A stretch of 49,661 bases of DNA from Candidatus Accumulibacter necessarius (GTDB lineage: Bacteria > Pseudomonadota > Gammaproteobacteria > Burkholderiales > Rhodocyclaceae). The notes under the pieces are model-generated. The model ran no database searches, had not been told where the DNA came from, and worked only from the letters and a program-made list of their open reading frames with translations. Below are positions 17,683 through 49,538 of the stretch, piece after piece (the stretch's first letter is position 1; each line of letters starts with the position of its first letter). The position numbers and the translations under genes were made by a program. Where the stretch lies: the NCBI GenBank assembly GCA_017302435.1, contig JAFLDL010000035.1, positions 1-49,661 of the forward strand, in the 5' to 3' direction.

Positions 17683-19071
17683 CTAGCCTGCCGCCAGCTT
17701 GCCGGGAACCGCACCAATCGAGCCGGCCCCCATGGTCACCACCACATCGCCATCTCGCGCGGCATCCAGAATCGCTTGCGGCAGGTCGCCAACAGCCTCG
17801 ACGAAGACCGGTTCGACCTTGCCGGCAACCCGCAGCGCACGCGCCAGCGCACGACCATCGGCCGCGACGATCGCCGGTTCTCCGGCGGCATAAACTTCGG
17901 CAAGCACCAGGGCGTCGACGCCACTGAGGACTTTCACGAAATCGTCGAAACAGTCCCGTGTTCGGGTAAAGCGGTGCGGCTGGAAGGCGAGCAGCAGACG
18001 GCGACCAGGAAAGGCGCCGCGCGCCGCGGCCAGCGTTGCCCGCATCTCGACCGGGTGATGACCGTAGTCGTCGACCAGCGTGAAGCGGCCGCCGCCCGGT
18101 AGCGGCAGGTCGCCGTAGCGCTGAAACCGTCGACCGACACCGCGGAACTCGGCCAGCGCCTTGACGATCGCTGTGTCGGCAATACCCAGTTCGCTGGCCA
18201 CCGCAATCGCCGCCAGGGCATTGAGGACATTGTGCCGTCCGGGCAGATTGAGGGTGACGGCCAGTCGGCTGATGCTGCCGTTGACCCGCACGCAATCGAA
18301 GCGCATCTGGCCTTCGACCGCGGTCACGTTCTCGGCATAGACGTTGGCTGATGAATCGAGACCGTAGCTGACGATCTGCTTGCTCACCAGGGGCATGATT
18401 TCACGGACGTTGGCGTCGTCGGCACACAACACCGCCACCCCGTAGAAGGGCAGGCGCTGGAGGAAATCGACGAAGGCCTGCTTGAGCCGGCTGAAGTCAT
18501 GGCCATAGGTCTCCATGTGGTCGGCATCGATGTTGGTAACGATCGAGATCACCGGGGACAGGAGCAGGAAGGAAGCATCGGACTCATCGGCTTCGGCGAC
18601 CAGAAAGTCGCCAGAACCGAGGCGGGCATTGGCACCGGCAGCGTTGAGGCGGCCACCGATGACGAAAGTCGGATCCATGCCGCCCTCGGCGAGAATCGAA
18701 GCGACCAGGCTGGTGGTTGTTGTCTTTCCGTGCGTTCCGGCGACGGCGATTCCCTGTTTCAGCCGCATCAATTCGGCCAGCATCTGCGCCCGCGGCACCA
18801 CGGGGACCTTGCGCGCGCGGGCTGCGATGACTTCGGGATTGTCCGACCTGACCGCAGAGGACACCACCACCGCATCGGCGGCGCTGACGTTCTCGGCGGC
18901 GTGCCCGACCGTCGTGCGCACGCCCAGAGCAGCGAGATGCCGGGTGGTCGCGTTGTCGGCCAGATCCGAGCCGCTGACCACGAAACCGAGGTTGGCCAGC
19001 ACTTCGGCAATGCCGCTCATGCCGGAACCGCCGATACCCACGAAGTGGATGTTCTTGACTTTATGTTTCAC
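17683..19071 (-). CDS. murC: UDP-N-acetylmuramate--L-alanine ligase
   Basis: MurC adds L-alanine to UDP-MurNAc. I place the start at GTG 19071, which has AGGAG eight bases upstream and overlaps the murG stop as GTGA, giving 462 residues. Landmarks are [19 protein letters not shown], the ATP loop [36 protein letters not shown] and [16 protein letters not shown]. An upstream GTG at 19089 lacks the ribosome site. Confidence 0.97.
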
Positions 19072-20123
19072 GGGGCAAGCTCCTCGCACATCCTGGCAAG
19101 CTCGGCCGTTGCCTCCGGCTTGGCCAGTTCACGCGCTCGTTCGGACATTTCCTGCAACCGACTGCGCGAGTAGTGGCACAACTCACTGATGGATTCGGGG
19201 GTCATTCGTTCCTGCGGCAACAGCGTCGCAGCGCCGGCCAGCGACAGGAAGTTGGCATTGAGCGTCTGGTGGTCGTCCACCGCATACGGAAATGGCACCA
19301 GTACGCTGGCCACGCCGGCGGCGGCCAGTTCTGCGATGGTCAGCGCTCCGGCGCGACAGATGACCAGGTCTGCCCATTCGTAGGCACCCGCCATATCCTC
19401 GATGAAAGCTGTGCAGTGTGCCGGTACGCCCGCGGCCTCGTAGTTCTGCCGCAGTTGCACTAGGTGCTTCTCGCCGGCCTGATGCACCACCAGTGGCCGC
19501 TCCTCGGCTCTGATCTGGGCGAGACCCCGGGGAACGATTTCGTTGAGAGCAGCCGCACCCTGACTCCCACCGAGAACCAGGAGATGCATCGGCGCTTCGC
19601 GACCGGCCAGACGCTGCGCTGGCGCCGGCAGCTTGTTCATCTCCGGGCGCAGCGGATTGCCAACCCAGACCCCGCCTGGCAAGGCACTGGGGAAACCACA
19701 GGCAACCCGCCTGGCAAGCCTGGCAAGCACCCGGTTGGCCAGGCCAGCAATCGAGTTCTGTTCGTGAATGATCAGCGGAAAGCCGAGCAGCGCAGCCATC
19801 ATGCCGCCAGGGAAGCTCACGTAGCCACCCATCCCCAGAACCACGTCCGGCCTCACCCGGCGAATTTCACGCCGCGCCTGCCAGCAGGCAGCGAGCAGGT
19901 GGAAAGGCAGCAGAAGCTTGCGCAGCAGGCCCTTGCCGCGCAGCGCAGCGAAGCGAACCCAGGCCATTTCGTAGCCACGCGAGGGAACCAGCTTCGCTTC
20001 CATGCCATCCGGCGCTCCCATCCAGACGACCCGCCAGTCGCGACTCTTCAGCAGGTCGGCCACCGCCAGACCGGGGAAAACATGGCCGCCGGTTCCGCCC
20101 GCCATGACGAGTAGCGTCTTCAT
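19068..20123 (-). CDS. murG: UDP-GlcNAc:lipid I GlcNAc transferase MurG
   Basis: MurG converts lipid I to lipid II at the inner membrane face. The 351-residue GT28 enzyme shows [83 protein letters not shown] and [15 protein letters not shown]. All glycosyl-acceptor and UDP-GlcNAc binding motifs are present. It overlaps ftsW by four bases (ATGA) and murC by four (GTGA). Confidence 0.97.
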
Positions 20124-21280
20124 ACTTTGGCTCCGCGCATCAACTGGCGATTCTCCCAGTCGATTCGCAGCAGGACTGCCAACGCCACGCAGTTGGCCAG
20201 AATTCCAGAACCACCGAAGCTCATCAGCGGCAGGGTCAGGCCCTTGGTGGGCAGGAGACCCATGTTCACGCCCATATTGATGAAGCCCTGTACGCCCAGC
20301 CAGACGCCAATCCCCTGTGCCACCAGCGCCGAATACAGTCGCTCGAGGCTGACTGCCTGACGGCCGATGGCGAAGGCCCTCTGAATCAACAGACCGAACA
20401 ATACGATGACCAGCAGCACGCCGAAAAAGCCAAGCTCTTCGGCAATCACCGCCAGCAGGAAGTCGGTATGCGCCTCGGGCAGATAGAACAGCTTTTCGAC
20501 ACTCGCACCCAGGCCAACGCCGAACAGCTCACCACGACCAAAGGCGATCAGCGCGTGCGAAAGCTGGTAGCCGCGACCAAAGGCATCCGCCCACGGATCC
20601 ATGAAGCCGAAGATGCGATCGCGTCGGTAGGGTGAGAAGATGATCAGTGCGGCGAAGGCGGCGGCCAGCACGAGGATCAGCACGACGAACAGGCGCGCCC
20701 GCATGCCGCCGAGAAAGAGAATCCCCATGGCAATCGAGATGATCACCACGAAAGCACCAAAGTCCGGTTCCTTGAGCAGCAGGATGCCGACAGCGACCAT
20801 CGCGCTGGCCAGCGGCAGGAAGGCCTTCTTCAGATCATGCATGTGTGGCATCTTGCGTGCCGTGTAATCCGCCGCGTAGAGGACGGCAAACAGTTTCATC
20901 AACTCGGAGGGCTGCAGATTGGCGATGCCCAGAGGAAGCCAGCGGCGTGCCCCGTTAACCTCGCGGCCGATACCGGGAATCAGTACCAGCGCCAGCAGCA
21001 CGAAGCCGGTGACGAACAGCCACGGCGACCAGCGTTGCCAGGTCGACAAGGGCACCTGAAAGGCAATGCCGGCAGCCACCAGCGCGATGATTAAGAAGAC
21101 GGCATGGCGCACCAGATAGTAGGTCGATTGATTGGCTGTCACGCGACCGGCCTCAGCAATGGCCATCGAGGCTGAATAGACCATGACCATGCCGATCACC
21201 AGCAGCATCAGGGTGCTCCAGAGAAGCGCCAGATCGATTTCCGAAGGCAGGCGGCGAGGCCCGTCGAGAGTTCGCAACAT
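20120..21280 (-). CDS. ftsW: Peptidoglycan glycosyltransferase FtsW
   Basis: FtsW is the SEDS-family polymerase of septal peptidoglycan. This 386-residue membrane protein has about ten hydrophobic segments and the SEDS motifs [11 protein letters not shown]-like [75 protein letters not shown] and [12 protein letters not shown]. Its ATG shares one base with the murD stop (TGATG). It acts with the transpeptidase FtsI encoded upstream in the same cluster. Confidence 0.97.
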
Positions 21281-22647
21281 CAGGCGGCCTCTCTTTCGAT
21301 ACTGCGAACGGCCGCGACGAATGCCTCGGCACGATGCGCGTAGTCACGATACATGTCCATGCTCGCGCAGGCCGGAGAAAGCAGGACGGCTTCACCGGTC
21401 TGCGCCTGCGCGGCGCACCAGCGGACCGCTTCCGCCATGTCGACGCAGAGGCGTGTGGGCACACAGCAGCCCTCGAGAACGGCGGCAATCGCCGCCGCAT
21501 CGCGTCCGATCAGCGCCACAGCGCGTGCATGTTGCTCTATTGCACTACGCAGAGGCGCGAAGTCCTGCCCCTTGCCGTCGCCACCAAGGACGATTGCCAG
21601 CCGGCGACCCAGGCCCTGAACGGCTGCCAGAGTGGCGCCGACGTTGGTCCCCTTCGAGTCGTCGAAGTAACTGACACCATTGATTTCGGCGACCCACTCG
21701 ACGCGGTGCGCGAGTCCGTGGAAGGCGGCGAGGGCCGGCAGCACCGAGTGTGGATCGATACCCACCGCCTGACAGAGGGCCAGTGCCGCCATCGCATTGC
21801 TGGCGTTATGACGTCCGACCAGCTTCAGCTCGGCGAGCGGAATCAACGGGTCAGCGCCGCGCACGATGCAACCGCCCTCGAGCCCATAATCAGACGGGCG
21901 CGGTGGCGGGTTGAGGCCAAAGGTCACGACCGCCCGGCCGGGGCGAGCGGCGGCCAGACTGCGCGCATCGTCGCGATTGAGAACCTGCACGCCCTGCCCC
22001 TGGAAGACGCGCGCTTTGCTGGCTGCGTAGTCATCCATGCCGGCATAGCGGTCAAGGTGATCTTCGCTGATGTTGAGGACGGTCGCCGCATCGGCCTGTA
22101 GCGTGTGCGTCGCTTCAAGCTGGAAGCTCGACAGTTCCAGAACCCAGATTGCCGGCAGGTCATTGCCGTCAATCGCGCTCATCAAGGCGTCCAGCGCTGC
22201 CGGACTGATGTTCCCGGCGACCCCGGTCCTGCGGCCGGCAGCGCGACACAGGGCACCGGTGAGGGCGGTGGTGGTGGTCTTGCCATTGCTGCCGGTAATC
22301 GCAATCACCTGCGCCCGCTGTGCGTTCTGCCGCAGGCCCCAGACAAAAAGTTCGATCTCGGAAACAACCGGGATCCCCTGCGCAAGCGCTTGCTGAACCA
22401 GCGGCGCCTGCAGCGGCACGCCGGGAGAAATGGCGACCAGTTCGACCCCGAGAAAAGCTTCCGGCGCAAAAGGACCGGCGAAAAGAGCCGCCTCCGGGAT
22501 GGCGGAACGTAGCGCGTCGGCCTGGGGTGGCGCACGCCGACTATCGGCCACACGTACGCACGCGCCCTGGCGCGCCAACCACCTGGCCATCGCCAGCCCG
22601 CTCTCGCCAAGGCCCAGGACCAACGTCAGTTTTCCCTGCAGGTCCAT
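21280..22647 (-). CDS. murD: UDP-N-acetylmuramoyl-L-alanine--D-glutamate ligase
   Basis: MurD adds D-glutamate to the stem. The 455-residue protein has [20 protein letters not shown], the ATP loop [55 protein letters not shown] and [19 protein letters not shown]. The start follows the mraY stop by one base. Length and motifs are standard. Confidence 0.97.
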
Positions 22648-22648
22648 G

Positions 22649-23737
22649 TCAGCGCAGCTTCAAGGTGGACAGGCCGACCAGCACCAGCATGATGGTGATG
22701 ATCCAGAAGCGGACGACGACCTGTGTCTCTTTCCAGCCGCCCAGTTCGAAATGGTGATGCAGCGGCGCCATTCGGAAGATCCGCCGGCCACCCGTCAGCT
22801 TGTAGTAGATCACCTGGGCGGCCACCGACAGCGTTTCGGCGACGAAAATGCCGCCCATGATCGCCAGCACGATCTCCTGACGAACGATGATGGCCACGGT
22901 GCCGAGGGCTGCACCGAGCGCCAGGGCGCCGACATCGCCCATGAACACTTCCGCCGGATAGGCGTTGAACCACAGAAAGCCCAAGCCGGCACCGGCCATT
23001 GCACCGAGCAGGATGGCGAGTTCGCCAGCCCCCGGAATGTACGGCAGGAAGAGGTATTTGGCATAGACCGCATTGCCCGCAACGTAGGCGAAGATGGCCA
23101 GCGCGGCGGCGATCATGACCGTCGGCATGATCGCCAGGCCATCGAGGCCGTCAGTCAGGTTGACGGCATTGCTCGTGCCGACGACGACGAGATAGCTCAG
23201 GACAACGAAACCGACGACCCCCAGCGGATAGGAGACGGTCTTGAAGAAGGGAACGATCAACTCGAGCTGTGCCGGCCCGCTTGCGCTCAGGCCGAGGTAG
23301 AGCGCCACCAGCAAGCCGATTGCCGATTGCCAGAAGTACTTCCAGCGTGCCGGCAAGCCCCGCGGATCGCGATTGACCACTTTCTGCCAGTCATCGTACC
23401 AGCCGATGCTGCCGAAACCCACGGTGACGATCAGCACCACCCAGACGTAACGATTGCCGAGGTCGCCCCACAGCAGCGTGGTGATGATGATGGCGATCAG
23501 AATCAGGGCGCCGCCCATGGTCGGCGTCCCGGACTTGATCAGGTGCGTCTCCGGACCATCGTGCCGCACCGCCTGGCCGATCTTCTTCGCTGCCAGCCAG
23601 CGGATCACGCGCGGTCCGGCGACAAAGGAAATGATCAACGCGGTCATCGCCGCAAGCACCGTCCGCAGGGTGATATAGCCGAAGACGTTGAACGCCCGCA
23701 CGTCCTGTGCCAACCATTGCGCCAGCAACAGCAACAT
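22649..23737 (-). CDS. mraY: Phospho-N-acetylmuramoyl-pentapeptide transferase
   Basis: MraY moves phospho-MurNAc-pentapeptide to undecaprenyl phosphate to form lipid I. The 362-residue polytopic protein has [12 protein letters not shown], the aspartate-rich [48 protein letters not shown] and the C-terminal [14 protein letters not shown] loop. The HHH motif and the DDxxK-type site mark the active-site face. Its ATG shares one base with the murF stop (TAATG). Confidence 0.98.
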
Positions 23738-25116
23738 TACTCGCCCCCCTCGGATGGCAGGCTGATGGCCTCGGCGACCCGTTCCATGCGCATGAACCGT
23801 GAGCCCTTGACGAGAACCGTTGTCTCCGGAGTCAGCTCAGCGGTCAACGCGGTGATCAGCTTGTCGATATTCGTATAGTGCTCGCCACCGGCACCAAAAT
23901 TATGGGCAGCGAGAGCACTGGCGTCCCCTAACGCCAGCAGGCGATCGACCCCCTGGCTTTTTGCATAGCCACCGATCTCGTCATGGAACTGGCCGCTCAT
24001 CTCGCCGATCTCGCCCATATCTCCAAGCACCAGCACCTTCTTGCCGATCGTCGCCGCGAGAACATCGATGCCCGCGCGGACCGAGTCCGGGTTCGCGTTA
24101 TAGGTGTCGTCCAGCAGTACCGAACCCTGCAGGGCGGCTCGCCGCTGCAGGCGGCCCTTGAGACCACGGAAGCTGGCCAGGCCAGCCTGCACTGCAGCAA
24201 GTGAAACGCCCGCCGCCAGGCAGGCGGTCGCTGCAGCCAAGGCGTTGCGTGCGTTATGCCGACCCGGGAGGGCGAGGAAGACTTCAAACTGGCCATCCGC
24301 CGCGACCACGCTGAGACGGCTTTCGAGCCCATGCAGGTGAACCTTGCCGCTGACGTCGGCTGGTTGTTCGAAGCCGAAAGTCATCACGCCCAGCCCGCGG
24401 CTCTGAGCCCGCCACAGGTCGGCCCAGGGATCATCGGCGCTGAAGACTGCAACCCCGTCCTCGTCCAGACCGGAATAGATGCTGCCCTTCTCGCGGGCTA
24501 TCGCTTCCAGCGAGCCCATCCCGGCCAGATGAGCACGCTGCGCATTGGTCACCACGGCGACACCGGGGCGGGCGATGCCCGCCAGATAGGCGATTTCACC
24601 GGGGTGGTTCATGCCCATCTCGATGATCGCCGCGCGATGGCCAGCATTCAGCCGGAGCAGGGTCAGTGGCAAACCGATGTCGTTGTTGTAGTTGCCCCGG
24701 GTGAACAGCACCGCCTCACCGAAGGCGGCTTTCAGGATGCTGGCGATCATCTCCTTGGTCGTCGTCTTGCCGTTGCTGCCGGTCACGGCGATCACCGGCA
24801 GCGTGAAACGACTGCGCCAGTCGGCGGCAAGCGCCCCCAGCGCCAGCCGCGTCTCGGCTACCTCGATCAGGGGAAAACCAAGCAAGTGCAGGCCAACCGC
24901 AGCATCTGCGGCCACCACCGCGGCCACCGCGCCACGCGCCTGAGCGGCCGCGACGTAGTGGTGACCATCAAAGTTCTCGCCACGCAGGGCAAGAAACAGC
25001 TCGCCGGCCGCAATCGTACGGCTATCGGTCGACACGCCGCAAAAGCCCAGATTGTCGCCGGCGAGCCTGCCAGCCATGGCGCGAGCAGCAGCGAGCAGGT
25101 TCATCATCGCGCTCAC
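23737..25116 (-). CDS. murF: UDP-MurNAc-tripeptide--D-alanyl-D-alanine ligase
   Basis: MurF adds D-Ala-D-Ala, the product of Ddl, to the stem. The 459-residue protein starts at GTG 25116, eight bases after GGGAGA, in a GTGA overlap with murE. Landmarks are [22 protein letters not shown], the ATP loop [37 protein letters not shown]-like sequence, [30 protein letters not shown] and [16 protein letters not shown]. Confidence 0.97.
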
Positions 25117-40400: not shown

Positions 40401-42442
40401 GCGCTGTCGGGCGGCAGGATGACGGGGACCGGCGGGTCGATCATCGGCCAGATTCCGCGTTCGACCGCCCGGCCGCCGTCGAAGACCAGCCAGCTCTGGC
40501 TGCCGTAGTGGGGTAATGGCCGCAGCAGAGCGCTCAGGGCGGCGGCGTCCCGGGCTGAAATCACCGCCAGCGCGGTGCGGCCCGGCACGGTCCAGACCTG
40601 TGCCGTGCCACGCTGGCCAGGGTCCGGCGGTCGCGGCGGCAGCTTCGCGGCAGCCAGCGCCGCATCGATCTCGGCATGCAGGCCGACCAGCAAAACCGGG
40701 GTCGCTACCCGGCGGAGTTCGTCGAGCGCGATCTCGCGCGGTGGCGCTTCGAAGACCCGGCCGGCCAGAGCCGTCGCCGCAGCGCGCACCTCGGGCAGCG
40801 CGGACACCTGCAGCAGTCGCGCTTCGCGCGCGACGATCCATTGCCGCAGGATCGGCGGCAACTGCTCGGCGTCGAGCGATCGCCAAAGGCGTAGGTCGGG
40901 GTCCAGGCGAACGCTCTTCGGCAGGCGGTCGACGGCCAGCATCAGCGTTTGCTGCGCTCCGTCCACGCTGAGCGTGCGGCTTTCGACGGCATCTCCATAG
41001 TCCAGCTCGATCGGCAGACGCAAGGCATAGGCGGGGGCGCCCTGGGTCACCTGGAAGCGCAGGCGGTAACCAGCGCTAGACGCCACGGCGCTGGCACCGG
41101 CGATCCTCGGTTGCGGCGCTCCCGGGCGATACAGCCACTGCCTGAAGAAGGAAGTCAGCACTTGCCCGGACGCCTGTTCAAAGGCCCGCTGCAGATCGCC
41201 CCAGGTGGCGACGCGGAAGCGCTGCTCTTGCCAGAAGGTCCGCAGCCCGCGCTGGAAGGCGTCTTCACCCAGCAGGTCGCGCAGCATCACGAAGAGCATC
41301 GCCGACTTGCCGTAGCCGACCGCCGCCGCGCCATGCGTTCGCGATCGGAACGAGGCCAGCGTCTGCCGGCTAGCCACGGGCACGGCGGCGAAGTCGCGCA
41401 GCCAGCCGAGCCGCAGCGCACGCGCGGCGGCGGCTGAGATTCGCTCCTGGTAGGCGTAGTCGGCCATGAAGGTCGTCAGCCCTTCGGCCCAGTTGCCGCT
41501 CGCGTAATCGACCAGGACGCCGTTGCCCCACCAGTTGTGAAGGATCTCGTGGCCCAGCGAGGTGGCGCGAATGAAGGGCAGCTTGAGCACCTCGGCGCCC
41601 AGGTAGGTCAGCGTCGGCATGCCGAAACCGGTCGGCAGCGGGCTGGCGACAACCGAAAAGCCGCGGAACGGATAGGCGCCGATCGCCGCGGCGTAGGATT
41701 CGAGATGCGCGCGCGTTTCGTCGAGATAGCTGTCGGCGAGACCCTTGATCCGGTCGAGATCGCGCGTGAAATAGGTGCGCAGGCGCAGTGGCTCGGCACC
41801 GGCCCGCGCCATCATCTGCTCGCGAATGATCCACGGACCGGCCATCAGGTCGATGCCGTCGGCCGGGTGCGCGAATTCAAAGTCGGCGCGATAGCGATCG
41901 CCACGGGCAAGCGGCAACTCTTCCTTGAGCAGGCGGCCGGCAACCAGTGCCCGCTGGTCGCCGGGCACGCTCAACCGGACCCGATAACGGAAAAACTCAG
42001 CCGGACGCGGATACCAGGCCCCACCGGCGGGCAGAAAGCTGCCTTCGACCGCGGCCATCGGCGGCAATTGGCGCAACACCTGACGATGGTCGAGCCGGGT
42101 GTCGAGCGCCGGCAGCGTGCCCTGATACTCGACGCGCAGCGACCGACTGCCGGCTGGCAGAGGCAACTGCCAGCGACGCAGACTGCCCTGCTGCTCGCCT
42201 GCCGTGATCGGCAGCGGGCGGCCATCCGCCGCAGCCGCGGCGATGGCCAGTGATTCGTGAAGGACGAAACGGAAGGTCGGCGGCACCGGAGTGATCGTGG
42301 CGACCACCGTGAGACGGCGGCTGCCCGGATCGAGATCGACGTCAAGGTCGATGGCCGGCGGGGCGGCGAACGCGACAGGCAGCGGCGCAGCAAGGACCAG
42401 CAGCAACCGCGCCAGTCGCCGCAGCATCGCCGGGAAGCTCAT
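40241..42442 (-). CDS. M1-type zinc aminopeptidase, exported
   Basis: From ATG 42442 the frame encodes 733 residues with a signal peptide ([15 protein letters not shown]). The zinc motif HEILHNWW is followed by [17 protein letters not shown], which gives the second glutamate 17 rather than 18 residues later. Upstream lie [15 protein letters not shown] and a substrate-type [14 protein letters not shown]; downstream are [18 protein letters not shown] and [16 protein letters not shown]. The last 60 or so residues, after [10 protein letters not shown], are arginine-rich and shadow-like and overlap the HipA-like remnant, so the native C-terminus may lie near 40430. Its ATG overlaps the ChaN-PDZ stop (ATGA), so the two are coupled. 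Confidence 0.8.
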
Positions 42443-43680
42443 CCGCCGGCGGGAAATCTGACGACCACTTCGAGCTTCCGCCCGGCGCGCTCGATCTGCA
42501 GCGGCAGCCAGGTTCCGGCCGGCTGCCGGCGGACGGCCGTGAGAACCGAAGACAGTTCCGCGGCCGGTTTGCCGGCGACTTCGAGAATCTGGTCGCCCGC
42601 TTGCAGACCGCTCATCTCGGCCAGGCTGCCGGGGCTGACACTGGCAATCACGACCCGACCGCCCTGCTTGTCGAGTGCCACACCCAGGCGCGGCGGCTCG
42701 GGTGCGGCGTCGGCGGTCACCGGCACGGCGAATACCGCATCGGCAATTCCCGGCCGCAGTTCGGCGCAATCGCCACCTGCCGGCATCGGCAGCAGGGTAC
42801 CGATCGACGGGATGCCGAGCGCGCGCAACTGATGCGGCACGCCATGGCCGAAGCGCAGATGCCCGCTACCCATGATGCCGACCACCAGCGGTCTCTGGTC
42901 GCCGGCGGCCGGCGCCGCCTGACGAGCCAGCACTTCGGCCATCGCCCGATCCCAGGCCAGCTGGGAATCGACGAAGTTGGCAAAGGCCGGATCGCGAGAA
43001 CTGGCTTTCGCCGTCTTGCCGCGCATCGCCGCATGCTGGCGGTAGATTTCGAAGAGGAACTGACGATAGGCGGCCAATGCTGGTGCCGGGCGGCCAACAC
43101 CTTCGCGTTCGGCCGCGGGGACGGCGTCCCATCCCTTCTCGGCAATCGCACGCGTCAACTCGGGTTCGATATTCAGGGCGAGCATCGGGATCCGGTTGAG
43201 GCGGGCGAACTGGAACAGCGGCAGGTAGATTTCAGCCGACACGCTCCAGACCTTCTCCCACTCGGACTGCGCCAGGAAATCCTTGACGCTCAGTTCGCCG
43301 GCCACCCAGCGATCGAGTACCGGCTGCACCCGTCGGGGAAACATTTCGAAACCGATCACCATCTGTGGCCGCTGCGCATGCAGACCGGCGAGCACCTGCA
43401 ACTGCCAGCGGTGATGGTCGGCGTCGTCGTGCTGCTCGCCGAGCAGCACGACGTCACGTCTTGCCAGCTCGGAGAGCACCTGCTGACTGTTGGCGAGCTG
43501 TGCTCCACGGTCGCCGAAGATCGTCCAGCTTGCGGGTGCCAGGCACGGCTTGCCGGTGGCCGGCGATTGCTCGGGCGCCTTGCCGGCCGCGCCGGTTTCA
43601 GTCACCAGGATGCCGGCAGCGACGGCGGTGACCAGGAGCAGAGCGAAGATCAGGCGAAAAAGGGAGGCTGTGGTCATCAT
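42439..43680 (-). CDS. ChaN-family protein fused to a PDZ domain
   Basis: The ATG at 43680 gives 413 residues; an in-frame ATG at 43698 is equally possible, as neither has a clear ribosome site. An N-terminal hydrophobic signal (SLFRLIFALLLVTAVAAGILV) is followed by the ChaN (EreA/ChaN haem-binding-like) domain: VVLLGEQHDDADHHRWQLQ, MVIGFEMFPRRVQPVLDRW, FARLNRIPMLALNIE and VVGIMGSGHLRFGHGVPHQL. The C-terminal 90 residues form a PDZ domain (GVALDKQGGRVVIASVSPGSLAEMSGLQAGDQILEV). ChaN binds haem pairs in Campylobacter; the role here is inferred. It is coupled to the M1-type peptidase gene. Confidence 0.85.
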   Translation of the reverse strand: MMTTASLFRLIFALLLVTAVAAGILVTETGAAGKAPEQSPATGKPCLAPASWTIFGDRGAQLANSQQVLSELARRDVVLLGEQHDDADHHRWQLQVLAGLHAQRPQMVIGFEMFPRRVQPVLDRWVAGELSVKDFLAQSEWEKVWSVSAEIYLPLFQFARLNRIPMLALNIEPELTRAIAEKGWDAVPAAEREGVGRPAPALAAYRQFLFEIYRQHAAMRGKTAKASSRDPAFANFVDSQLAWDRAMAEVLARQAAPAAGDQRPLVVGIMGSGHLRFGHGVPHQLRALGIPSIGTLLPMPAGGDCAELRPGIADAVFAVPVTADAAPEPPRLGVALDKQGGRVVIASVSPGSLAEMSGLQAGDQILEVAGKPAAELSSVLTAVRRQPAGTWLPLQIERAGRKLEVVVRFPAGG

Positions 43681-43931
43681 GGTCGGGATCGGGAGCATTC
43701 GGGGTGAGCTGGCCCGATACGCGGGCTGGCGTGAGCTGACTATTCTGCGGCCTAATTGACAAGGACAAACGAGGCATGATGGGGTTCAACCGGCAGCGTA
43801 CTTTCGCCCTTCCGACGGCGGCTCTCGGCACGGGCGATTCGTGCCAGCGAGCGTGAAAACGCAGCGCAGGGTGCCGGAAAAGTCCTCAAGCTGCTATCTT
43901 GTCGCGGTTGATTCTACCGCGGGAGCGCTCA

Positions 43932-46100: not shown

Positions 46101-47336
46101 ATGCGTCAGAAGATCTCGCTCATCGTTCAACCGGGCGACAGTTTTTTCCCCATCGTACGCGCGATTGACCGGGCGGAGCGCTCGATCAACCTGACCGTAT
46201 TCCGGATGGACGACCCGATCATCCAGCAGGCGCTGCTCGAAGCTCGCCAGCGCGGCGTCCGGATTCGCGTGCTCATATCAAGCAGTGCTCGCGGCTGGGA
46301 GGAGAAGAACCGCAAGCTCCTCAAGGACGCCAAGGAGACCGGTATTGCCACCAAGGAACCGGCGGGTGACAGCAAGCGGGCGCGATACCACTACAAGGTA
46401 ATGACCGTAGACGACGAGGAGGCTCTCGTGTTCACCTTCAACCCGACTCGGGAAAACCTTCACTACACGCGCGACTTTGGCATCCAGGTCTACAACCCCG
46501 CGATCGCCACCGAGATCAACCGGCTCTTTAACGCTGACTGGAATGATCTACCCTTCGCACCCGACCAGGAGTCGCCGTTGCTGGTCAGCCCGTTCAACAG
46601 CCGGCAGAAAATGGAGATGCTGCTCGAAAACGCCGGGGAGTCGATCCAGATCGCCGACGCGAAACTGACCGACCCGGCAATCATCCGCCTGCTGGTGAAG
46701 AAGGCCCGCAGCGGCATCCCGATCCGCGTCCTTGGTGACGAGGAACACGGCAGCGAGCTACCTTCCGAGATCGATTTCCGGGCGGTGCCACGCTACAGAC
46801 TGCACGCCAAGTGCGCGATCATTGACGGTGTCACGGCGGTCATCGGCAGCATGAATCTGCGCACGGAGAGCCTCGATCGGCGCCGCGAACTCTCCATCAC
46901 GGTCGACGACGCCGACGTCCTGCGCGGGTTGGCGGCCGTCTTCGAGAGTGACTGGGAGCACAAGGCACCGGCATCCGACAGCACTGCCACGCAGGTCATG
47001 AGGGCATTTGACACGCTGTCCACAGAACCGGCCACGGTCTCGGTGGTTGGCTTCGTGCTCATCTCCCGCACCAACGCGCTGGTCCGGCATGCCGTTCGCG
47101 AAGGGCTGACCGCCATCGGGCGCGCGCAGGAGAACGACATCGTGATCACCGACGCCCTAGTGAGCAGGCACCACGCGCAGATCGCGCTCGACGGGGGCAC
47201 CTGCCGAATAACGGACCTTGGCAGCGGCAACGGAACTTTCCTGAACGGGGAACGAATCACCGGGAGCAAGTGCCTGCGCCCAGGCGATGTCGTAAGGATT
47301 GCCGAGAGCGAAGAGTTTCGCCTCCTGGAAATCTAA
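46101..47336 (+). CDS. Phospholipase D-like protein fused to an FHA domain
   Basis: The ATG at 46101 (GTG at 46098 is also possible; AGGA lies upstream) encodes 411 residues without signal peptide. Two PLD repeats each carry HxKx4D: H97/K99/D104 in YHYKVMTVDD and H235/K237/D242 in LHAKCAIIDG, the second followed by GSMNLRTESLDRR. Residues about 325-411 form a forkhead-associated domain with GR at 340-341, SRHH at 355-358 and GNGTFLNG (376-383), all phosphothreonine-binding signatures. PLD enzymes cleave phosphodiesters in lipid or nucleic acid. The FHA part could recruit it to phosphorylated partners. Its target is unknown. Confidence 0.88.
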   Translation: MRQKISLIVQPGDSFFPIVRAIDRAERSINLTVFRMDDPIIQQALLEARQRGVRIRVLISSSARGWEEKNRKLLKDAKETGIATKEPAGDSKRARYHYKVMTVDDEEALVFTFNPTRENLHYTRDFGIQVYNPAIATEINRLFNADWNDLPFAPDQESPLLVSPFNSRQKMEMLLENAGESIQIADAKLTDPAIIRLLVKKARSGIPIRVLGDEEHGSELPSEIDFRAVPRYRLHAKCAIIDGVTAVIGSMNLRTESLDRRRELSITVDDADVLRGLAAVFESDWEHKAPASDSTATQVMRAFDTLSTEPATVSVVGFVLISRTNALVRHAVREGLTAIGRAQENDIVITDALVSRHHAQIALDGGTCRITDLGSGNGTFLNGERITGSKCLRPGDVVRIAESEEFRLLEI

Positions 47337-48902: not shown

Positions 48903-49538
48903 ATGAGCGAACTGATGGCGCAGGCACGCCACCGGATTAGCGGCGACGACTATTAAAAAACGGCCAAGGCGGGGGTTTTTGGCGAAGACAGCCGCGTGGA
49001 ACTCATTGACGGGGAGATCGTCGATAAGGCGCCGATTGGCAGCAAGCATGCTTTTGTCGTCAGCCGTCTGGCCCAGTTATTCACCCTGGCTGCCCGCGAT
49101 GATTATCTGGTCAGCGTCCAAAATCCTATCCGGCTCGACAACTACTCGGAGCCGCAACGCGATATCGCCTTGCTCAAGCCAGGTAACTACATGGACAGCT
49201 TACCCGGCGCCAGGGATGAGCTTTTGATAGTCGAAGTCGCCCACTCCTCCATCAGCTTCGACCGTGGCGTGAAGCTGGATCTTTACGCGCGTCACGCCAT
49301 TCCGGAAGTCTGGCTGCTCGACCTGATGGACGGACAGTTGCTCGTCAGCCGCAAACCTGTCGACGGGCAATATCGGACAATGCACAAGCCGCTCCCCGAT
49401 GAAACCGTCTCGTCCCTGCTTGCGCCGCAGCTTGCGTGGACTTTGGAGAGCGGGAAATCCTGGTCTGATAATCATCTAGCCGGCCTCCCACCGCCGCGGT
49501 GGCGGTGGGTTTATAGTGAGTTTGCATGCTTACGTTAG
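48903..49538 (+). pseudogene. Uma2-family (DUF820) nuclease gene with in-frame stop
   Basis: Two frame-matched halves join across a single TAA at 48954-48956: MSELMAQARHRISGDDY, stop, then KTAKAGVFGEDSRVELIDGE and on through IGSKHAFVVSRLAQLF, LLIVEVAHSSISFDRGVKL and YARHAIPEVWLLD. Homologues, as I recall, read DYYKMAE here, so the stop fits one TAT/TAC-to-TAA change. The conserved catalytic PD pair reads RD (PQRDIALL). After LLAPQLA the C-terminus departs from the family. Uma2 proteins have a PD-(D/E)XK fold and are common in cyanobacteria and Rhodocyclales. A restart at GTG 48996 is possible but would omit the N-terminus. Confidence 0.75.
49487..49509 (+). terminator. Hairpin in the altered 3' end of the Uma2 pseudogene
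   Basis: CCCACCGCC pairs with GGCGGTGGG around a five-base loop and is followed by TTTAT. It has the form of a Rho-independent terminator with a short T tract. It lies inside the extended reading frame, which supports the view that the native stop was upstream. Confidence 0.45.

What the first reader, a model, noticed from the sequence alone, without database searches (positions are those of the whole stretch)
46101..47336. PLD-FHA fusion: a phosphodiesterase with a phosphothreonine-reading module
Two intact HxKx4D repeats are joined to a complete FHA domain in one cytoplasmic protein. I know of no named family with this order. It could be a phospho-regulated lipid- or nucleic-acid-cleaving effector, perhaps tied to a Ser/Thr kinase elsewhere or to a type VI secretion or defence setting. 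No kinase or secretion gene is adjacent, so the role is open.
Basis: partly seen in the sequence, partly recalled or inferred. Interest (0 to 1): 0.72.

Follow-up and report, generated by a model that had tools for sequence, protein, structure and literature searches.

The report
Phosphodiesterase fused to phosphothreonine-reading domain
A sludge bacterium (Candidatus Accumulibacter) carries a conserved protein joining a phospholipase-D-type enzyme to a domain that reads phosphorylated proteins, which may let protein kinases switch or position the enzyme.

Summary
Window 46101-47336 (+) encodes an intact 411-aa protein: two PLD-like domains, each with HxKx4D, a variable linker and a complete FHA domain. 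The host is Candidatus Accumulibacter (relatives). The fusion is real: full-length orthologues (73-86% identity) occur in 18 of 27 other genus genomes and one Blastocatellia MAG (57%), as one clade. Across six compared pairs, dN/dS is 0.11-0.17 in PLD, 0.13-0.34 in FHA and 0.39-0.50 in the linker. Sampled family, order, class and phylum genomes outside the genus gave no full-length copy. T6SS is not supported: TssC is absent from 25 of 28 genus genomes, this one included. Neighbours are not conserved, but neither is a control gene's 3' side. Seven Hanks kinases are encoded on other contigs. New: the linker keeps D-x3-T297-Q-V-[LMI]-R (Thr in 20 of 20), recalling the GarA/OdhI phosphosite. Best reading: a cytosolic PLD-type phosphodiesterase gated or placed by FHA-phosphothreonine binding, possibly to its own linker; substrate unknown. 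Plant TDP1-beta is a published HKD+FHA precedent. New variant of a known kind.

The parts
46101..47336 (+). PLD-PLD-FHA fusion gene, 411 aa plus stop
   Evidence: orthologues
46152..46541 (+). first PLD-like domain, residues 18-147 (best PLDc_2 stretch)
46389..46412 (+). HKD motif 1, H97-x-K99-x4-D104; followed by F111-T112-x-N114 in place of G-S-x-N
46578..46958 (+). second PLD-like domain, about residues 160-286 (limits from the predicted model)
46803..46826 (+). HKD motif 2, H235-x-K237-x4-D242; followed by G249-S250-x-N252
46977..47003 (+). conserved linker motif, residues 293-301 (D293 ... T297-Q-V-M-R301), candidate phosphothreonine site
   Evidence: T297 in 20 of 20 rows; residues 297-301 mean identity 0.86 against 0.46 for 302-317
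47052..47333 (+). FHA domain, about residues 318-411 (Pfam core 338-400)

Best explanation
A cytosolic, two-HKD PLD-superfamily phosphodiesterase whose activity or location is set by Ser/Thr phosphorylation. The two HKD repeats form one active site in a single chain (inferred from fold and conserved residues). The C-terminal FHA domain binds a phosphothreonine made by one of the genome's Hanks kinases (inferred from conserved FHA residues). The ligand is either a partner protein or the protein's own linker Thr297; the latter would be a GarA/OdhI-like intramolecular switch that opens or blocks the enzyme or the FHA face. Shown here: architecture, conserved catalytic and FHA residues, purifying selection on both parts, conserved Thr297, kinases present elsewhere in the genome. 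Inferred: catalysis, phosphorylation, binding, switching. Substrate undetermined; I lean slightly to a membrane phospholipid over nucleic acid.
For: Domains. Catalytic and FHA core residues invariant in 12 of 12 rows. dN/dS over the six pairs computed: PLD 0.11-0.17, FHA 0.13-0.34, linker 0.39-0.50 (ratios from the dN and dS). The 20 fusions form one side of a branch with 100/99 support. Linker motif in 20 rows: T297 20, Q298 19, V299 18 (Leu in 2), hydrophobic at 300 19, R301 17, D293 17; Thr codons vary between ACG, ACC and ACA. 167 of 20000 column shuffles give as conserved a 5-block. Residues 288-315 have pLDDT under 50, in line with a flexible segment. The GarA/OdhI peptide SDEVTVETTSVFRADFL (passages of PMC8546545), read from its second Thr, shares Thr, Val at +2, a hydrophobic at +3 and Arg at +4; a solved structure is named Rv1827 pThr 22. 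Seven Hanks kinases in this genome, 3 to 12 in each of 28 genus genomes. Closest solved structure by sequence and fold is the PLD 7e0m. Lipid lean: the PLD-only relatives lie next to an ABC exporter gene in 4 of 7 loci examined; these exporters are 60-75% identical to each other.
Against: Kinase presence does not track the fusion. No gene neighbour is conserved across the genus. The linker resemblance to GarA is four of five residues in a short motif; with residues 278-411 as query the GarA match covers the FHA part only, and the best solved FHA match is Rv1747, not GarA. The paper assigns the PknG site to GarA Thr21, the first Thr of ETTS, in which register the match is poorer. PLD-only relatives also have a conserved tail after the DW, so residues 290-303 could be a structural end of the PLD part. 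The Blastocatellia copy keeps Thr and Val but not Gln or the hydrophobic at 300. HKD1 lacks G-S. Substrate evidence is split between lipases, nucleases and polyphosphate kinase. The rows are close kin, which inflates conservation.
Confidence: 0.55

Rival explanations
1. The FHA domain is a docking module only: it brings a constitutively active PLD-type nuclease or lipase to a phosphorylated partner, with no intramolecular switch; the linker motif is a kinase-docking or structural element.
For: FHA core residues conserved. In plant TDP1-beta an FHA domain accompanies HKD sites, and the paper describes FHA as mediating phosphorylation-dependent interactions in DNA damage signalling (passages). 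A conserved tail after the PLD part also exists in PLD-only relatives.
Against: Does not by itself explain why one Thr is kept in 20 of 20 rows of a fast-evolving linker.
Confidence: 0.3
2. A defence or effector protein: a DrmC-like PLD nuclease acting against phages, or a secreted toxin.
For: DrmC models match the PLD part (PADLOC 1.5e-20, NCBIfam 1.2e-15). Patchy presence in the genus, 19 of 28. A Uma2-type protein with weak PADLOC hits lies 1.7 kb downstream.
Against: Below the NCBIfam DrmC cut-off (57.7 against 133 bits). None of the 7 neighbours scanned matches a DISARM model. TssC absent in 25 of 28 genus genomes, this one included. Viral contigs gave no relative; phage records gave 2 FHA-only matches and plasmid records none covering 80%. 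Both domains are under purifying selection.
Confidence: 0.08
3. The PLD part is catalytically altered (HKD1 has F-T in place of G-S) and acts as a binding module or as a transferase in polyphosphate or cardiolipin-type chemistry rather than as a hydrolase.
For: F111-T112 in 12 of 12 rows. Pfam PP_kinase_C_1 scores 28.0 against 25.7 and PP_kinase_C 25.8 against 25.8. PPK1 structures rank right after 7e0m. The host genus accumulates polyphosphate (general knowledge).
Against: H, K, D of both motifs, N114 and N252 are invariant. PPK matches are expected from the shared fold, at about 20% identity, and the PPK1 equivalog score is far below its cut-off (30.5 against 465.85).
Confidence: 0.07

Closest known systems
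Plant TDP1-beta
   Same: HKD phosphodiesterase motifs and an FHA domain in one chain (passages of PMC5704218 and PMC10137840).
   Different: Tyrosyl-DNA phosphodiesterase type, 1085 aa in Arabidopsis, with a HIRAN domain; its sequence was not fetched or compared here.
Serratia plymuthica phospholipase D (SpPLD, PDB 7e0m), PLDc_2 family
   Same: Best solved match by sequence (E 3.5e-13) and by fold (E 2.3e-19); two HKD motifs in one chain.
   Different: SpPLD has a predicted signal peptide and GS/GT after its two motifs (passages of PMC8004604); no FHA is mentioned in the passages seen; 19% identity.
GarA / OdhI (actinobacterial FHA regulators)
   Same: FHA domain preceded by a segment with a conserved Thr motif; FHA match E 1.3e-11 (6i2q).
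   Different: No enzyme domain; OdhI equivalog score far below cut-off; phosphorylation here is untested; Rv1747's FHA domain is a slightly better match.
PLD-only relatives (e.g. G000:C43:28225-29124)
   Same: Two HKD repeats, 33-35% identity over residues 6-293 in this genome.
   Different: No FHA domain; other side of a 100/99 branch; beside an ABC exporter gene in 4 of 7 loci examined.

Membership tests
PLD superfamily (PLDc_2) | two HxKx4D motifs in PLD-fold repeats | tested here: met
PLD superfamily (PLDc_2) | GG or GS after each HKD | tested here: inconclusive
   present after HKD2 (G249-S250), F-T after HKD1 in 12 of 12 rows. The pair varies in known members; SpPLD has GS/GT, so I do not treat it as excluding
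FHA phosphothreonine reader | conserved Gly-Arg, Ser, His and Asn-Gly core | tested here: met
   invariant in 12 of 12 rows; Pfam 72 bits. The role of these residues is recalled knowledge
FHA phosphothreonine reader | binding to a pThr peptide | not testable with these tools
   needs an assay
GarA/OdhI | NCBIfam OdhI equivalog score over cut-off | tested here: not met
   49.8 against 200 bits; I claim only that it may work like GarA
GarA/OdhI | phosphorylatable Thr motif N-terminal to the FHA domain | tested here: inconclusive
   T297-Q-V-[LMI]-R conserved; phosphorylation untested
DISARM DrmC | NCBIfam equivalog score over cut-off; DISARM partners nearby | tested here: not met
   57.7 against 133 bits; no DISARM model among 7 neighbours scanned
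T6SS-associated protein (TagH or effector) | TagH score over cut-off; T6SS in the genome | tested here: not met
   TagH 33.4 against 120.25 bits; TssC 0 in own genome, 3 of 28 in genus
Polyphosphate kinase 1 | equivalog score over cut-off | tested here: not met
   TIGR03705 30.5 against 465.85 bits
Plant TDP1-beta type | sequence homology to TDP1 and a HIRAN domain | tested here: not met
   no HIRAN or TDP1 model among the Pfam matches up to E 0.01

The most novel reading that the evidence does not exclude
An enzyme with a built-in GarA-type phospho-switch: a Hanks kinase phosphorylates Thr297 in the linker, the protein's own FHA domain captures pThr297, and this intramolecular clasp turns a PLD-type phosphodiesterase on or off, giving a bacterial lipid or nucleic-acid cleavage event under direct Ser/Thr kinase control.
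Probability: 0.3. Interest if true: 0.65.

Novelty: new variant of a known kind. Interest (0 to 1): 0.5.

Why it matters
From general knowledge, FHA domains in bacteria are best known in regulators, secretion parts and kinase partners; a conserved fusion to a PLD-type enzyme would turn Ser/Thr kinase signalling directly into phosphodiester cleavage. The conserved linker Thr offers a one-residue test. The host genus drives biological phosphorus removal in sludge.

Tried and rejected
T6SS setting: not supported, TssC in 3 of 28 genus genomes and not in this one. Mobile-gene idea: the gene has different neighbours, 9 groups by downstream flank among 19 genus loci (23 of 171 pairs share it; upstream 18 of 153 pairs), and DNA similarity ends at the gene in the 8 fusion-bearing genomes among the 12 I chose. 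But the 3' side of the neighbouring molybdopterin oxidoreductase is as rearranged (6 of 55 pairs, 11 loci), so I drop any claim of mobility. That control's upstream side is trivial because it lies inside the control gene. Phage or plasmid origin: no full-length match. Linker homology to GarA: the first run's alignments reached into the linker, the run with residues 278-411 did not, so only a motif resemblance is kept. Shared neighbour in the Blastocatellia locus: the alpha/beta hydrolase after the gene is 28-32% identical to the one beside the gene in five Accumulibacter loci, but this genome has no orthologue of it and only 15 of 28 genus genomes do, so I draw nothing from it. The model is modest (mean pLDDT 70.4, pTM 0.62, 12 sequences), so fold ranks are used only at superfamily level. 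Literature: searches showed no bacterial PLD-FHA protein; one search listed 20 of 55 papers, and the library is open-access only.

Full report
Observation. The window holds an intact ORF at 46101-47336 on the + strand, 411 residues. Pfam assigns two PLDc_2 stretches (E 5.6e-38) and one FHA domain (E 5.6e-20). Both HKD motifs are complete; the second is followed by G-S-M-N, the first by F-T-F-N. Upstream on the same strand is a molybdopterin oxidoreductase; downstream are a PEP-CTERM protein on the other strand and a Uma2-type protein.

Host and distribution. The 10 closest named loci are 73-86% identical over all or nearly all of the protein; 9 are labelled Accumulibacter and one only Pseudomonadota. 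In the genus, a full-length fusion is present in 19 of 28 genomes including this one; 5 of the other 9 have only a PLD-only relative and 4 have no match at E 1e-20. Among 199 family genomes sampled the full-length match occurs only in the 6 of this genus; among 399 order, 398 phylum and 369 class genomes the only full-length match is the window's own. These samples overlap, and in the last three the tool scored at most four candidates per genome. Outside, one Blastocatellia MAG has it at 57% identity (L046). Its other neighbours do not resemble those in Accumulibacter apart from an alpha/beta hydrolase at 28-32% identity and an ABC ATPase. That fits horizontal transfer; a binning error is not excluded. 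Other phyla could not be sampled (one search failed). Viral contigs gave nothing, phages two FHA-only matches, plasmids 40 records, none covering 80% of the protein.

Evidence that the fusion is real. In 20 rows (19 genus loci and L046) the protein aligns nearly end to end; three rows were cut at residue 403 or 404 by the local alignment. Of residues 293-320 one is invariant, of the first PLD half 50%, of the second 35%, of the FHA part 25%. For six pairs with the window, dN/dS is 0.11-0.17 in PLD, 0.13-0.34 in FHA and 0.39-0.50 in the linker (ratios). A tree of 44 PLD parts puts all 20 fusions on one side of a branch with 100/99 support; several PLD-only rows have long branches. So the fusion arose once as far as these rows tell, and both parts are under selection.

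The linker motif. After residue 301 the linker averages 46% identity, but residues 293-301 stand out: T297 20 of 20, Q298 19, V299 18, hydrophobic at 300 in 19, R301 17, D293 17. Residues 297-301 average 0.86, and 167 of 20000 shuffles of columns 291-317 give as conserved a block; the shuffles do not model relatedness. The GarA/OdhI peptide SDEVTVETTSVFRADFL is given in PMC8546545 (passages seen). Read from its second Thr it shares Thr, Val at +2, a hydrophobic at +3 and Arg at +4. The same passages place the PknG site at GarA Thr21, equivalent to OdhI Thr14; a solved entry is named Rv1827 pThr 22, and the abstract of PMC2784874 reports OdhI Thr14 and Thr15 phosphorylated in vivo. That the phosphorylated segment there binds its own FHA domain rests on cited titles (Nott 2009, Barthe 2009, seen in the reference list) and on recall. 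Cautions: PLD-only relatives carry a conserved tail of their own after the DW; Rv1747's FHA is a slightly better match than GarA's; the rows are close kin.

Kinases and context. The genome has 7 Hanks-type kinases over the Pfam cut-off, none on the window's contig. All 28 genus genomes have 3 to 12 at E 1e-20, with or without the fusion. A cluster on contig C17 has a kinase, a PP2C phosphatase, a second kinase and an FHA-trypsin-like protein. TssC is found in 3 of 28, not here. The fusion's flanks fall into 9 groups by downstream side, but the control gene's 3' flank is no better conserved.

What the enzyme may cut. The closest solved relative by sequence and fold is SpPLD 7e0m. It is followed in fold by PPK1, vaccinia F13, PLD3 and PLD1/2, and in the family profile by Nuc, PPK1 and mitochondrial cardiolipin hydrolase. 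This does not choose between lipid and nucleic acid. The only hint is that PLD-only relatives lie next to an ABC exporter gene in 4 of the 7 loci examined with flanks (L083 and L087 by Pfam, L088 and L089 by 60-75% identity to them; not L084, L085, L086), which tilts me slightly to lipids.

Comparison. Plant TDP1-beta has HKD sites, a HIRAN domain and an FHA domain (passages of PMC5704218), so the pairing has a eukaryotic precedent. Six searches of the open-access library showed no bacterial example in what they listed. I call this a new variant of a known kind: a PLD-superfamily enzyme with an added phosphothreonine reader, and a testable candidate for an intramolecular phospho-switch.

Noticed in passing
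G000:C43:28225-29124 (L083 9208-10284): The PLD-only relative lies 11 bases after an ABC exporter gene; the same pairing, with exporters 60-75% identical, appears in L087, L088 and L089 from other genera.
   Followed up: partly
L100 6015-11668 (G000:C17): Cluster of Ser/Thr kinase, PP2C phosphatase, second kinase and a protein with two FHA stretches plus a trypsin-like domain.
   Followed up: partly
window 48996-49538; L040 9327-10091; L044 8008-8730; L077 8462-9226: A Uma2-type protein lies 1.7 kb after the PLD-FHA gene in the window, and a 61-62% identical one lies directly after it in three loci of one synteny group.
   Followed up: partly
window 42439-43698 (-): ChaN-like haem-binding domain joined to a C-terminal PDZ domain in one protein.
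   Followed up: no
L046 7992-9239: A Blastocatellia MAG carries the fusion at 57% identity, a possible cross-phylum transfer.
   Followed up: partly
window 17683-19089, 21280-22647, 23737-25116 (-): Three ORFs in the window cluster as homologues of one another; not identified.
   Followed up: no
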